DNA from: Methanocaldococcus infernus ME
Lineage (GTDB): Archaea > AGJL01 > Methanococci > Methanococcales > Methanocaldococcaceae
Length of the DNA stretch: 64,000 nucleotides
Assembly: GCF_000092305.1 (NCBI RefSeq)
Contig: NC_014122.1
Location: 186,001-250,000 of the forward strand
Reading direction: 5' to 3'
The position numbers were made by a program, and so were the translations under genes. Numbering within the stretch: position 1 is the first letter of the stretch; each line of letters opens with the position of its first letter. The notes below the pieces were generated by a model that was given only the letters and a program-made list of their open reading frames with translations, ran no database searches and was not told the DNA's origin. Shown piece by piece: positions 34,070 to 61,616 of the stretch.

Positions 34070-35065
34070 TTACTCCCCTAAGTATTTCTTTAACTTATCC
34101 AACTGCTCACAGGTTCCAAATGCATAAATAATATCTCCAACATTCAGCTTTAACTCAGGTGGAGGGTTGGTTATATATTTTCCATCCTTTACAACCACCA
34201 GTATAGTAGCTCCAGTTTTCTCTCTAATCTTGGAATCTTTTATAGAGACTCCATCTAACTCTTTATTTTTAACTTCAAATCTTCTAATTTCCATGTCTTC
34301 CTTTGTAGCCACTAATGAATGGATAAACTCAACAATCTCAGGAGATATTGCCAACCTTGCTATTTCCATTCCTCCAACAGTGTAGGGGCAGACAGCTCTA
34401 TCAGCTCCAGCCTTTATTAACTTGTCTAATGTAGATGGAGCATCAGCTTTAGACACAATAAAGATATTTGGATTCAATTTTTTGGCTGATAATGTTATAA
34501 AGACATTCTCAGCATCTGAGCCCACAACAGTTATTAAACCTTTAGCCTTCTTTATCTTAGCTTTCTCTAAGGTTTCATCCTGAGTAGCATCTCCATGGAT
34601 ACAGAGAAAGTTAGGATTTTTTTCTATTTCCTCCTTTAACTTCTCTTCATCTTTATCTATAACTATATAAGGAATATTATTCTTCTCAAGCTCATAAGCT
34701 ACTATCCTTCCAAGCCTTCCAAAACCACAGATAATATAATGATTTTCCAACTTTTTTATTCTATCTCTCATCCTTTTCAGCCTAAAGTATCTTTTAAAAT
34801 GCCCCTCTATAAAGAAGCTGGCAACATTACTTAATGTATAAGCTACAGCCCCAACTCCAGCAAAGATGTAGATGATAACTGAAAGCTTTCCAAGAAAGGT
34901 TTTGGGGGTGTAGTCTCCATAACCAACTGTGGAGATGGTTACAACTGCTGTATAGAAAGCAGTGAAAAAATCCCAATGCTCTGTAATACTTAAAATTAAA
35001 GATTCTAAGAGGATAATAGAGAATATAGCTAAAATCCCAACAATAATTTTCTCATGAGTTTCCAT
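34070..35065 (-). CDS. Ligand-gated potassium channel with RCK domain (MthK-like)
   Basis: A 331-residue protein. TM1 is at residues 7-28, the pore helix and filter are TVVTISTVGYGDYTPKTFLG, and TM2 follows. From residue 105 an RCK/TrkA-N domain begins (HYIICGFGRLGRIVAYELEK, then FLCIHGDATQDETLEKAKI), and a TrkA-C domain ends the protein. This is the MthK plan: ligand binding to an RCK ring opens a 2-TM pore. It overlaps the next channel gene by 14 bp. Confidence 0.9.
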   Translation of the reverse strand: METHEKIIVGILAIFSIILLESLILSITEHWDFFTAFYTAVVTISTVGYGDYTPKTFLGKLSVIIYIFAGVGAVAYTLSNVASFFIEGHFKRYFRLKRMRDRIKKLENHYIICGFGRLGRIVAYELEKNNIPYIVIDKDEEKLKEEIEKNPNFLCIHGDATQDETLEKAKIKKAKGLITVVGSDAENVFITLSAKKLNPNIFIVSKADAPSTLDKLIKAGADRAVCPYTVGGMEIARLAISPEIVEFIHSLVATKEDMEIRRFEVKNKELDGVSIKDSKIREKTGATILVVVKDGKYITNPPPELKLNVGDIIYAFGTCEQLDKLKKYLGE

Positions 35066-35669
35066 CTTCTCCTCTTAAAGCCTTCTGTATAGATGTAATG
35101 ATCCCTGAGATAAATAAAAGGACAGAAAAGATAATAATTAACTTCCCAGCCTCAGTTTTTGGGGTTATATCTCCATAACCAACTGTTGTTATTGAGATGG
35201 TTGTAAAGTAAAAGGCATCAAAGAAGTTATTTATTTCTGGATTAACCTCACCCTCAAAAACCCAGATAAAGCAGGAAGATATAAAGCAGAGAATTAAGAG
35301 AGTTAGAAAGTTAATAACCTCTGGATACTTCTCTATCTTCCTTATTTTTATAATTCTAAGCAAAACTAAGATTCTTATCAAGTTGATAAGCCTTAAATTA
35401 ACTAAAACCTTTGAGTAGAAAATATTTAGGGTGTAAAGAACAAAAGCTATAATAACTATAGTATCTATAATATTATAAATATCTTTAAAAAACTCCTTTT
35501 TGCACTTAGCCTTGTAAAAATTGTAAAGAGTTTCAAAAGTGAAGTAGAGGATAGCTATATAATCCAAGATAAAAAGAACTTGAGAATGTATATGATAGGT
35601 TGAGAGTATAAAGGAAATAGCTATCTCCAATGTGAAAATTAAGCTTAAAAGTTCTTTAATTTTTCCCAT
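35052..35669 (-). CDS. Voltage-gated-type potassium channel (6 TM)
   Basis: About 205 residues with several membrane segments. An arginine-spaced S4-like helix (NLRLINLIRILVLLRIIKIR) is followed by a pore, FTTISITTVGYGDITPKTEA. The arrangement resembles the M. jannaschii voltage-gated channel MVP, though I infer gating from the S4 pattern only. I choose the ATG at 35669 with GGTGGTTAC just upstream; the frame extends to 35681. It overlaps the RCK channel gene, giving a two-channel operon. Confidence 0.85.
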   Translation of the reverse strand: MGKIKELLSLIFTLEIAISFILSTYHIHSQVLFILDYIAILYFTFETLYNFYKAKCKKEFFKDIYNIIDTIVIIAFVLYTLNIFYSKVLVNLRLINLIRILVLLRIIKIRKIEKYPEVINFLTLLILCFISSCFIWVFEGEVNPEINNFFDAFYFTTISITTVGYGDITPKTEAGKLIIIFSVLLFISGIITSIQKALRGEDGNS

Positions 35670-35699
35670 TGTAACCACCAAAAAAGAGGGAGGAGTTAT

Positions 35700-36209
35700 A
35701 TGTTAAGAGAGCTTGTTAAAAGAAGTTGGGAACTTATTGAAGAGGAAGAGAGGATTAGATACATTGATGAAGCATTTTTAGGCTCTTTGATCACCCTCCT
35801 ATTGGATAACAATTTTGTTCTAATTGAAATTAAAACTATGAATGAATATAAAAGCTTAACCTTTGAACACTTAGACAGTTGGCTTAGGGTTAAGTTAGAT
35901 ATCTTCCCCAAAGAGCATAGCTTAGCTGAGTTTAAAACTGTAGGATCAAGAGCTTTATTAAGGCTCTCTGTTGGAGCTCCTTCAAAGCTTGAGAAGTTTT
36001 TAAAGTTTGGAGTTAAAGAAATACTTTCTTCAAGGCTTGGGAGTGTTGGCTCTATAGTTTATGACTATGACAATTACTACACCTATGTAGGTGTAACTTT
36101 ATATATACTAATAAATGACTACATAGATGAAAATCTTAACATAGACTGGGAAAAGCTAAAGAACTTCTTAAAAGCTATTGAAGAGCTTACAGCATACTTA
36201 GAGGGATGA
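35700..36209 (+). CDS. Unknown protein, tandem paralogue 1
   Basis: A 169-residue soluble protein starting MLRELVKRSWELIEEEERIR with a good GGGAGGAG ribosome binding site. Its core, DEAFLGSLITLLLDNNFVLI, then LTFEHL and GSRALLRLSV, aligns with the next gene's DEIFVGELIRYMYKNGGYLI, LTFKFK and GSQTLLTLEV. Both therefore come from a duplication. Family unknown. It is divergent from the voltage-gated channel with a 30-bp spacer and overlaps its paralogue by 4 bp. Confidence 0.6.
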   Translation: MLRELVKRSWELIEEEERIRYIDEAFLGSLITLLLDNNFVLIEIKTMNEYKSLTFEHLDSWLRVKLDIFPKEHSLAEFKTVGSRALLRLSVGAPSKLEKFLKFGVKEILSSRLGSVGSIVYDYDNYYTYVGVTLYILINDYIDENLNIDWEKLKNFLKAIEELTAYLEG

Positions 36210-36724
36210 AGATGTTTAACATTCTAAGAGAAATTAAACATAGTAAAGAGTTAATTAGTGCAAAGGATGAGATTTTTGTAGGAGAGCTTATAAGATACAT
36301 GTATAAGAATGGAGGCTATCTTATAAATATTAGCTCTTTAGAACACTCCCATAACTTAACATTTAAGTTCAAAAATTCTAAGATTTATAAGTTGAATGTT
36401 TCAGTTGAGAGAAAGGTTGATGGCTTAGCCTCCAAGCTTATAGGTTCTCAAACCTTACTAACCTTAGAGGTGATCAAAAAGAAAGAGTTGGTTGAGCCAG
36501 AGGAAGTTATTAAAATGATAGGGACTGATTTAAAAAACATGTTGAAAGTTCCTTTATTTGGGCAGGTTAAGATTGATCATGACTTAAATTATATTAAGGC
36601 AAGAACTACCTATATAATTGACTTAAATAAATTTATTCATGAAAAGGAAGTTAATAAGGAAGAGCTGGAGAAGGAGATTGAAAAGATTATAGGGACTTTA
36701 ATTGAAAGTTTAGAAGAGGTTTAA
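36206..36724 (+). CDS. Unknown protein, tandem paralogue 2
   Basis: A 172-residue protein homologous to the preceding gene (see above). It has a predicted mixed alpha/beta fold and an acidic C-terminal helix (KEELEKEIEKIIGTLIESLE). No membrane segment or metal motif is visible. Translation is probably coupled through the ATGA overlap. Confidence 0.6.
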   Translation: MKMFNILREIKHSKELISAKDEIFVGELIRYMYKNGGYLINISSLEHSHNLTFKFKNSKIYKLNVSVERKVDGLASKLIGSQTLLTLEVIKKKELVEPEEVIKMIGTDLKNMLKVPLFGQVKIDHDLNYIKARTTYIIDLNKFIHEKEVNKEELEKEIEKIIGTLIESLEEV

Positions 36725-36763: not shown

Positions 36764-38337
36764 TTATCTTCTATAATATTTTTCAATAATTTCCTCAACC
36801 TCTTCCTCAGGGATGTTAAATTTCTTTGCTATCCTCTTTAGCCTCTTTTCTAATGGAGGGTGTCTATAAAACATATTTAAAAATCCAAAGCTCTTAGGGA
36901 GATAGTTGGAGGAGTGTAACTTACATAAAGCCCTAATATATGTTTTAGCTCCAACAGCTTTAGATGCTAATAGATCAGCTTCAGTTTCAAGCTTTCTAAT
37001 AAAGTAGCTTTGAACTAACTCTATTAGCACATAGATAAGACCAAATAAGACTATTAATATTGGCTCCTCAACATTAAACTTTAATAGGAAGTAATAAACT
37101 TTAATAGGAAGTAATAGAGGATTGAGAAGATAATAATGGTTATAACTATATTCCCAAGAAAGCCTATTTTAACATGTATCTTCTTCCTATGTGCTAACTC
37201 ATGGGCAATTATTCCTTTAATTTCATCTTCATTTAAAGATTCAAGTAATTTAGTGGTTAGGACTAACCTCTCTCTGAACAATCCTTTTATATAAGCATTT
37301 GCCATTGGAGATTTTATAACCTCTATTTTCTTAGGAGGAGAGACATTTAATTTTTTACTAAGCTCATTGGTCCAAGATTTAATTCTTTCATCAGCTTCCT
37401 CAACTTTAACAAATCCAACTTTTTTAAAGAGAAGATCAATAAGTTTATAGTAGATGTTAAAGATAATTGAATAGAAGATGATCCAAAATGAAATTCTTAA
37501 GACAAAAGGAAGATTATAGAACTCTTTCTTAAATGGCTCTATTATCTTTTCTGACATCCCACTAATTAAGAAAATAAATACCCCAACTATTGGAAGAACT
37601 ATTATGATTAAAACAATAAGGGTTTTTAAATACTCTTTTCCTGTAACCTTTTCATCATAAAAGTTGCTTATCTCTTTTAAGTTTATAAAGATTGGGATAA
37701 AGACGATTAAGAACACCACTAAAAATAAGGCAGGAAAAATAATAGTTGGAGAGATATTTAGGAAGTAAGAGAGTAGTAAAGGAGAATCACAAACTATTAA
37801 AGAAAGTAGGAAAAGAATAGCAATAACTATAGAGTTAAGAAATAATAGAGAGTTATATTTTTTTATAACCTTACTCTTTTCCTCTACACTCAATGGCTTG
37901 GATTTAAAGAGAGCCTTAATTTTCAAGCTTATTAATATAGTTGAAACTATCATTATAAGAAAAAGTGCTATACAGAGTATAATTATTGGAAGGTTGAGAG
38001 AATACTTAACCCTTAAAATAGAGCCATTTAGAGAATAATCATTAATCTTTAGAAATTTGGCACAGCTTACTTCATTTAAAGTTAGGTTACTAAGATTTTT
38101 AAAGTTAAAGGTTAAAATTTCCCTCTTTTTATCTAATGGAACCTTCAAAGAATAAAAATAATTAGAGTCTTCTTTAAACTTATTTAATTCTAAGTAGGAA
38201 AGGTTGGAGATTATGGGAGAGATATTATTTTTAGACTCAATCTTAATCCAGCCATAGCTATCTAAATTGACACTAACATTTATAGAATAAACTGAGTTAA
38301 TTAGTAAAAGTATAAAAATTAGCTTTAAAGCTCTCAT
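36764..38337 (-). pseudogene. M48-type zinc metalloprotease, frameshifted by a 20-bp duplication
   Basis: The 5' part (37081-38337, 418 residues) has a signal peptide (MRALKLIFILLLINSVYSIN), an exported N-terminal domain, several membrane segments, and the HELAH zinc motif (IKGIIAHELAHRKKIH). It then runs into a stop. The 3' part (36764-37030) carries the second zinc element, ETEADLLASKAVG, and the usual C-terminal RHPPLEKRLKRI. Between them a 20-bp unit is repeated in tandem (37076-37115). Removing one unit joins the frames as FLLKFNVEEPILIVLFGLIY and gives a protein of about 515 residues. As it stands the gene lacks its third zinc ligand. Confidence 0.85.
37076..37115. repeat. Perfect 20-bp tandem duplication inside the M48 gene
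   Basis: The unit AAACTTTAATAGGAAGTAAT occurs twice with no base between. Twenty is not a multiple of three, so the duplication shifts the frame and creates the stop at 37081-37083 on the minus strand. Confidence 0.92.
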
Positions 38338-38338
38338 C

Positions 38339-40782
<2,444 letters not shown>

Positions 40783-49754: not shown

Positions 49755-50383
49755 GTGTTTATCCCCTAAGGGGCGTTATTTTACTTGCCTAAATTACTAC
49801 TATTGACGAAACACTTCTCGTTTCCATCCCCTAAGGGGCGTTATTTTACTTTATTAGGGTTAAAGAAAATGGATTTATATGCGATTATGTGGTTTCCATC
49901 CCCTTAGGGGCGTTATTTTACAGAATTTAAAAGTGTTATCATCTACGGAAAGAAAAGAGTTTCCATCCCCTTAGGGGCGTTATTTTACTTTGAACGAATT
50001 CAGAAATAGAGCAATAATAGAATGTTTCCATCCCCTTAGGGGCGTTATTTTACGATGTGATATTCAGAATAAAACTACCTGATGGGTTTATGTTTCCATC
50101 CCCTTAGGGGCGTTATTTTACTTAAGACATTATATGATGAACTGCCTAAAATAAGTTTCCATCCCCTTAGGGGCGTTATTTTACCTGGAGACTTCTGAAG
50201 CATTAAAGGCTCAGCTTGGTTCGTTTCCATCCCCTTAGGGGCGTTATTTTACGAATTTTCAGTTATATTTGAAATTTCAATCACTGCGTTTCCATCCCCT
50301 TAGGGGCGTTATTTTACTTTAATCTTTTTTGTGATGCTAACTTAATTGCATATGTTTCCATCCCCTTAGGGGCGTTATTTTAC
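49755..50383 (-). CRISPR. CRISPR array 1: 10 repeats, 9 spacers
   Basis: Thirty-base repeats start at 49755 (degenerate), 49820, 49892, 49959, 50024, 50092, 50155, 50223, 50288 and 50354; spacers are 33-42 bp. Read on the minus strand the repeat begins GTAAAATAACG, has the palindrome CCCCTAAGGGG, and ends ATGGAAAC, the usual form of an archaeal 8-nt crRNA tag. The two leftmost repeats carry a changed palindrome centre and the leftmost has a mutated end. Both signs place the old, distal end on the left and the leader on the right. Confidence 0.95.
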
Positions 50384-59938: not shown

Positions 59939-61616
59939 GTTTGAATCGCCAGTCCATTAAAACAAGGATGGAAACTAAATTCTCCAAGGTCACAAATGGT
60001 TTTAAACGCGTGTTTGAATCGCCAGTCCATTAAAACAAGGATGGAAACTCAGTGATTCTTTGTAAGATGTATGTGGAGATACAGTTTGAATCGCCAGTCC
60101 ATTAAAACAAGGATGGAAACAATTTATCTTCTAATATATCTTTTGCGTAGTATGATAGTTTGAATCGCCAGTCCATTAAAACAAGGATGGAAACAGTCGT
60201 TTCTTGCTAATTCCCAACTATATATATAAGTTTGAATCGCCAGTCCATTAAAACAAGGATGGAAACACCCCAAATCAATTATCACATCGACTAAGTGTGG
60301 GGTAGTTTGAATCGCCAGTCCATTAAAACAAGGATGGAAACTGTTCACTTTTCTCAAGTAACTTCAAGAGTTTCTGGTTTGAATCGCCAGTCCATTAAAA
60401 CAAGGATGGAAACTTTCCCTCATACTCAAACTGATACCCAAATCCCCAACTGGTTTGAATCGCCAGTCCATTAAAACAAGGATGGAAACACCCCAAATCA
60501 ATTATCACATCGACTAAGTGTGGGGTAGTTTGAATCGCCAGTCCATTAAAACAAGGATGGAAACTGTAAATACTGTAAATTATCATTAGATACATACGAT
60601 AGTCATAAGATATAGTTTGAATCGCCAGTCCATTAAAACAAGGATGGAAACTATACTATAACCGCTAAGTAATTAACCGACAAAAGTTTGAATCGCCAGT
60701 CCATTAAAACAAGGATGGAAACAGTATAGATGGTAAAGAGCAGGAATGTCCTGAAATTGTGTTTGAATCGCCAGTCCATTAAAACAAGGATGGAAACCTG
60801 TTATCAGTCCTTTTTTTCTGAGATATTGCAAGTTTGAATCGCCAGTCCATTAAAACAAGGATGGAAACAATTACGGGTATTTTACAACAGCAGTAAGCCA
60901 AGCCAGTTTGAATCGCCAGTCCATTAAAACAAGGATGGAAACTGAGTTCATCTTTTCCAGATCTTATAATATCTTCAATATGTTTGAATCGCCAGTCCAT
61001 TAAAACAAGGATGGAAACAAACATTCATAATAAAACCTCTTCCAGCCATTCCTTGTTTGAATCGCCAGTCCATTAAAACAAGGATGGAAACAGCAAGAAT
61101 TTCTTTTCTAAATTTTCAGCATTGAAGTGTTTGAATCGCCAGTCCATTAAAACAAGGATGGAAACAGCTCTTCTTTGAGCTTTTCTAATGTCAATTTTAG
61201 AGAGTTTGAATCGCCAGTCCATTAAAACAAGGATGGAAACTAAATCAAATTTATTGATGCTTCTATTATTGCCTTGTTTGAATCGCCAGTCCATTAAAAC
61301 AAGGATGGAAACGTAAAGTTTCCAACGTTAGCATTAAATCAATTGGAGAAGTTTGAATCGCCAGTCCATTAAAACAAGGATGGAAACTTACTTTTGAGAA
61401 CTTTTTTAATAACGAAATTAAAGATTATAGTTTGAATCGCCAGTCCATTAAAACAAGGATGGAAACTTACTTTTGAGAACTTTTTTAATAACGAAATTAA
61501 AGATTATAGTTTGAATCGCCAGTCCATTAAAACAAGGATGGAAACCTAACTATCACATCTATATTTATGAATTCATCAAGTTTGAATCGCCAGTCCATTA
61601 AAACAAGGATGGAATC
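59939..61616 (+). CRISPR. CRISPR array 2: 23 repeats, 22 spacers
   Basis: Thirty-seven-base repeats begin GTTTGAATCGCC and end GGATGGAAAC, starting at 59939, 60012, 60084, 60158, 60230, 60305, 60377, 60453, 60528, 60615, 60686, 60761, 60832, 60906, 60982, 61055, 61129, 61204, 61276, 61351, 61430, 61509 and 61580. Spacers are about 34-50 bp. The last repeat ends GGAATC, marking the distal end, so transcription runs left to right. Two spacers are each present twice. No cas gene is in the window. Confidence 0.97.

What the first reader, a model, noticed from the sequence alone, without database searches (positions are those of the whole stretch)
36764..38337. M48 membrane protease split by a perfect 20-bp tandem duplication
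The unit AAACTTTAATAGGAAGTAAT occurs twice in direct tandem (37076-37115). With both copies the frame stops at 37081 and the zinc motif HELAH is cut off from the third ligand (ETEADLLA). Deleting one unit fuses the halves smoothly into a protein of about 515 residues. Everything else in both halves is intact. The lesion must be recent, or it is a reversible slippage switch, or it is an assembly error. The neighbour upstream is another membrane protease (SDH class).
Basis: seen in the sequence. Interest (0 to 1): 0.72.

Follow-up and report, generated by a model that had tools for sequence, protein, structure and literature searches.

The report
Protease gene broken by tandem duplication
In this heat-loving archaeon a membrane-protease gene carries one 20-letter stretch twice in a row, which shifts the reading frame and cuts the protein off before its last metal-binding residue; it looks like an ordinary recent loss of a dispensable gene (or a sequencing/assembly slip), with no sign of a purposeful switch.

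Summary
A perfect 20-bp tandem duplication (37076-37115, inside a 42-bp period-20 run, 37075-37116) lies in a minus-strand M48-family membrane metalloprotease gene. The frame ends at 37081, after HELAH but before the third zinc ligand, and the rest of the gene stays open in the -1 frame. Six intact homologues from five Methanococci genomes are single open frames of 409-536 aa; in the four aligned, 61-64 residues separate HExxH from the third-ligand Glu. The one-unit reading here gives 60 residues and a 517-aa protein; a rescued two-unit reading would give 67. The single unit is therefore ancestral and this genome holds the derived, broken form. The downstream half has diverged no faster than the upstream half and has no further stop, so the lesion is recent (rough bound <0.13 substitutions/site). 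The gene is accessory (4 of 14 genomes of the genus) and HtpX is intact elsewhere. No slippery heptamer, RNA structure or internal ribosome-binding site argues against frameshift rescue or a split enzyme. Nothing supports an evolved switch, although any perfect 20-bp tandem repeat can revert. No reads or second strain are held, so an assembly error stays open at about 1 in 5. Ordinary finding.

The parts
37075..37116 (-). Period-20 perfect tandem run, two copies of a 20-bp unit plus 2 nt; frame-shifting lesion
37081..38337 (-). Upstream half of the M48 membrane protease (418 aa): signal-like helix, extracytoplasmic domain, TM helices, HELAH; ends ...YYFLLKFITSY*
   Evidence: (PF01435 profile positions 4-99/186)
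36764..37168 (-). Open frame with the downstream half: third zinc ligand (ETEAD), last TM helix, C-terminal part; no start codon with a recognisable ribosome-binding site
   Evidence: (PF01435 profile positions 128-184/186)
38339..39178 (-). Upstream neighbour: SDH-type ClpP-fold serine protease, stop 1 nt before the M48 ATG (same transcription unit likely)
39154..40776 (-). CTP-synthase-like gene (pyrG, named from its sequence), overlapping the start of the SDH gene; probable head of the operon
   Evidence: identification by eye

Best explanation
A spontaneous 20-bp tandem duplication (strand misalignment over a 2-nt TA microhomology in an AT-rich stretch) arose recently in an accessory M48 membrane metalloprotease gene. 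It shifts the frame, so translation ends 4 codons after the junction. The predicted product is a 418-aa membrane protein that keeps the two His ligands but lacks the Glu ligand, the last transmembrane helix and the C-terminal part, and so should be proteolytically dead. Shown: the duplication, the frames, the single-unit state of the intact homologues, the missing ligand. Inferred: that the DNA is real, the slippage mechanism, lack of activity, and that loss was tolerated because the gene is dispensable.
For: Perfect duplication and frame effect. All six intact homologues in G006 (two copies), G007, G013, G034 and G035 are continuous frames. For the four aligned with it (G006 two copies, G007, G013) the HExxH-to-Glu distance is 61-64, against 60 in the one-unit reading. 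Relative-rate check: identity of G006a to own versus to G007 is 42.8/57.4% (ratio 0.75) upstream of the lesion and 48.0/63.6% (0.75) downstream, so no relaxed decay downstream. No second stop in 110 downstream codons; 6.8% of substitutions there would make one, which bounds divergence since the lesion at about 0.13 per site. Accessory gene: 4 of 14 genus genomes carry it; HtpX intact elsewhere. In archaea, large indels/tandem duplications form 10-15% of spontaneous pyrE mutations in Sulfolobus acidocaldarius (PMC7785828), and a 9-nt direct repeat is an indel hotspot in Halobacterium (PMC2816208).
Against: No read data and no second strain, so a sequence error cannot be excluded. The 2-nt microhomology is barely more than chance in AT-rich DNA. 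The product's inactivity is not measured.
Confidence: 0.68

Rival explanations
1. Assembly or finishing error: two contig ends that overlapped by exactly 20 bp were joined without merging, or a base-level error in that stretch. The real gene has one unit and is intact.
For: The one-unit reading gives a perfect family member. It is the only such duplication in 284 kb. The copies are 100% identical. Two extra matching bases occur by chance in about 1 of 13 cases (match probability 0.28).
Against: A 42-bp run is far shorter than any common read, so a spanning read should settle it; the assembly is a single finished-looking contig.
Confidence: 0.2
2. Reversible ON/OFF state: slippage or recombination between the two units deletes one and restores the protease, so a population is mixed and the locus works as a low-frequency switch.
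For: Perfect tandem 20-mers can lose a unit. Reversible microhomology-mediated tandem duplications with premature stops are described in fission yeast ssp1 (review PMC13207564; the primary paper was not available).
Against: Reversibility alone is not a switch. The unit is single in the intact homologues, only two copies exist here, no strain variation is known, and flanking DNA structure is unremarkable (149 of 406 windows fold as well).
Confidence: 0.06
3. The full protein is still made from the two-unit gene by a -1 ribosomal frameshift in the ~85-nt frame overlap (7 extra residues in the loop after the HELAH helix), or the halves are made separately and assemble.
For: The overlap is open in both frames; the extra residues would fall near a helix boundary where homologues vary in length by up to 3 residues (low-confidence model).
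Against: No X-XXY-YYZ heptamer in frame in the overlap; RNA fold z = -0.27; no purine-rich site before the GTG at 37030; all homologues are continuous.
Confidence: 0.04

Closest known systems
Intact M48 membrane proteases of Methanococci (G006 x2, G007 = JAADDS010000001.1, G013, G034, G035)
   Same: Same architecture, 39-43% identity to the full-length homologues of the genus (36% to the shorter G006 copy), HExxH ... ExxAD, about 60 residues between ligands
   Different: They have one unit and one open frame, and lie directly upstream of a cbiL-type gene; here the gene is broken and lies behind SDH/pyrG
Ste24p / HtpX (M48A / M48B)
   Same: Pfam M48 catalytic core; a weak profile match to Ste24p 4il3 (E=0.0012)
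   Different: All NCBIfam HtpX models score far below their cut-offs; an extra N-terminal extracytoplasmic domain is present
Short frame-shifting tandem duplications, including microhomology-mediated tandem duplications (MTD)
   Same: Exact tandem copy of a short coding segment giving a premature stop, reversible in principle
   Different: Microhomology is only 2 nt; reversion has not been observed

Membership tests
Peptidase family M48 (PF01435) | Profile score above the curated cut-off | tested here: met
   Upstream half 58.9 bits and downstream half 29.1 bits, cut-off 20.3; they cover profile positions 4-99 and 128-184 of 186
Peptidase family M48 (PF01435) | HExxH plus a downstream Glu ligand in one chain | tested here: not met
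   HELAH is in the upstream frame, ETEAD in another frame behind the stop; met in all homologues. So: a broken member of the family, not a functional one
HtpX (NCBIfam equivalogs) | Score above the equivalog cut-off | tested here: not met
   Best 36.8 bits against cut-offs of 245-422; intact relatives also fail
Repeat-tract phase-variable gene | Repeat tract whose unit number varies between strains or cells | not testable with these tools
   No reads or second strain held; the unit is single in homologues
Programmed -1 frameshifting | Slippery heptamer plus downstream structure in the frame overlap | tested here: not met
   No in-frame heptamer; z = -0.27
Microhomology-mediated tandem duplication | Microhomology pair at both ends of the single-copy segment | tested here: inconclusive
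   2 nt (TA) only

The most novel reading that the evidence does not exclude
The two-unit form is one state of a naturally maintained, reversible genetic switch (or bet-hedging mixture across the several chromosome copies of the cell) that turns a membrane protease on and off in a hyperthermophilic methanogen.
Probability: 0.04. Interest if true: 0.6.

Novelty: new member of a known kind. Interest (0 to 1): 0.17.

Why it matters
Mostly an annotation matter: the gene should be recorded as a frame-disrupted M48 protease, and the site is a simple resequencing target. If the duplication is real, its loss rate in culture would give a measured rate of tandem-repeat deletion in a hyperthermophilic methanogen.

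Tried and rejected
A flanking hairpin as driver of slippage: present (CTTCTCAA...TTGAGGAG), but windows of equal size fold as well in 149 of 406 cases. Programmed frameshift: no heptamer, no structure. Separate start for the downstream half: no ribosome-binding site before the GTG. Another genomic copy of the unit as source: only a 2-mismatch match at 956086, with one match also in the reversed-pattern control. The first scan of genome contigs with the broken protein found nothing; the second, with an alignment, found one close relative, already known as G007, and distant ones. A structure model of the G007 homologue has mean pLDDT 60: too poor for a fold search, used only to note a helix boundary near the lesion. 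Rfam: nothing. The sigma-70 promoter scan is at the level of shuffles and does not apply to an archaeon.

Full report
OBSERVATION. The unit AAACTTTAATAGGAAGTAAT is at 37076-37095 and 37096-37115 without a mismatch; the period-20 run is 42 bp, 37075-37116. From base composition such a run is expected about 3e-8 times in 64 kb. Outside the CRISPR array no other perfect tandem with a unit above 12 bp was found in the window or in eleven 20-kb stretches sampled across the same genome. The genome is a single contig of 1,328,194 bp.

FRAMES. On the minus strand the upstream frame runs from ATG 38337 to TAA 37081: 418 aa, with HELAH at 379-383 and the end ...SILYYFLLKFITSY. The other half is open from 37168 to 36764 in the -1 frame and holds ETEADLLA and HPPLEKR. 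Pfam M48 matches the two halves at profile positions 4-99 and 128-184 of 186. With one unit read, the halves join into 517 residues.

RELATIVES. Homologues were found in G006 (tandem pair, 536 and 409 aa), G007 (536), G013 (536), G034 (525) and G035 (530), all uninterrupted. In G006a, G006b, G007 and G013 the distance from HExxH to the Glu ligand is 61, 64, 61 and 61 residues; the one-unit reading here gives 60, while a two-unit reading rescued by a -1 shift would give 67. The single-unit state is therefore ancestral. The family is accessory: 4 of 14 genomes of the genus, and 6 of 36 in the class, counting the own one. An intact HtpX-like protein is encoded elsewhere in this genome. NCBIfam HtpX models are not met by the broken or the intact proteins; a profile of the family matches Ste24p (4il3) weakly.

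AGE OF THE LESION. Measured against G006a, identity upstream of the lesion is 42.8% for the own gene and 57.4% for G007 (ratio 0.75); downstream it is 48.0% and 63.6% (ratio 0.75). The downstream half has not diverged faster. It has no further stop in 110 codons although 6.8% of substitutions would create one, which bounds divergence since the lesion at about 0.13 per site at 95%, assuming equal substitution rates. This is a loose limit and fits anything from laboratory loss to moderately old natural loss.

CONTEXT. In the five other genomes the M48 gene lies directly upstream of a cbiL-type methyltransferase gene. Here the best cbiL match is at 103,684, about 120 kb away, and the M48 gene follows SDH and pyrG with 1 nt between the SDH stop and the M48 ATG. 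In the 13 other genomes of the genus the SDH gene is followed by a different small ORF, not by M48. The M48 gene thus sits at a rearranged locus in this species.

MECHANISM. A 2-nt microhomology (TA) bounds the unit, consistent with strand misalignment, but weak evidence. The flanking inverted repeat is not unusual. Large indels and tandem duplications are a normal part of archaeal spontaneous mutation spectra (PMC7785828), and direct repeats are indel hotspots (PMC2816208). A related methanogen lost a nitrate reductase gene to a stop codon, which its authors attribute possibly to laboratory transfers (PMC13381448), a precedent for recent loss of dispensable genes.

ALTERNATIVES. A frameshift rescue lacks a slippery site and structure, and a split enzyme lacks a translation start for the second half. 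A switch is possible in the trivial sense that any perfect tandem repeat can lose a unit; nothing here shows that it is used. An assembly error, typically an unmerged 20-bp overlap, would look exactly like this and can be judged only with reads.

VERDICT. Accurate observation, ordinary meaning: most likely a recent inactivating tandem duplication in an accessory protease gene, with an assembly artefact as the main rival.

Noticed in passing
L018:4207-6121, L019:3278-5647, L020:3835-6203, L051:1489-3749, L052:1483-3758: In five relatives this M48 gene is directly followed by a cbiL-type (precorrin-2/cobalt-factor II C20-methyltransferase) gene, in G034 and G035 with a 1-nt overlap; a conserved pairing of a membrane protease with a corrin-pathway gene, for no evident reason, and broken in the window's genome.
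   Followed up: partly
L018:4892-7738: G006 holds two M48 copies in tandem; the second lacks the N-terminal extracytoplasmic domain, and the C-terminal tails of the two (KEFNIPDEEVEKIMDEAYEE) are identical, as if recently converted.
   Followed up: no
window 34070-35681 (-): Two adjacent ORFs both with a K+-channel selectivity-filter motif (TVGYGD), the downstream one continuing into a TrkA-N-like domain; identification by eye.
   Followed up: no
window 35700-36724 (+): Two overlapping ORFs (169 and 172 aa) without any Pfam match, convergent with the broken protease gene.
   Followed up: no
window 49959-50184 and 60012-61614: CRISPR-like arrays; the second has repeat GTTTGAATCGCCAGTCCATTAAAACAAGGATGGAAAC and includes a perfect 79-bp repeat-spacer duplication (61350-61545).
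   Followed up: no
L020:8420-10911: A TnpB-like ORF with an HVHLLL (TnpA-like) ORF end interrupts a methyltransferase-like gene that is intact in G007 (L019:8545-9963), consistent with an IS200/IS605-type insertion; by eye.
   Followed up: no
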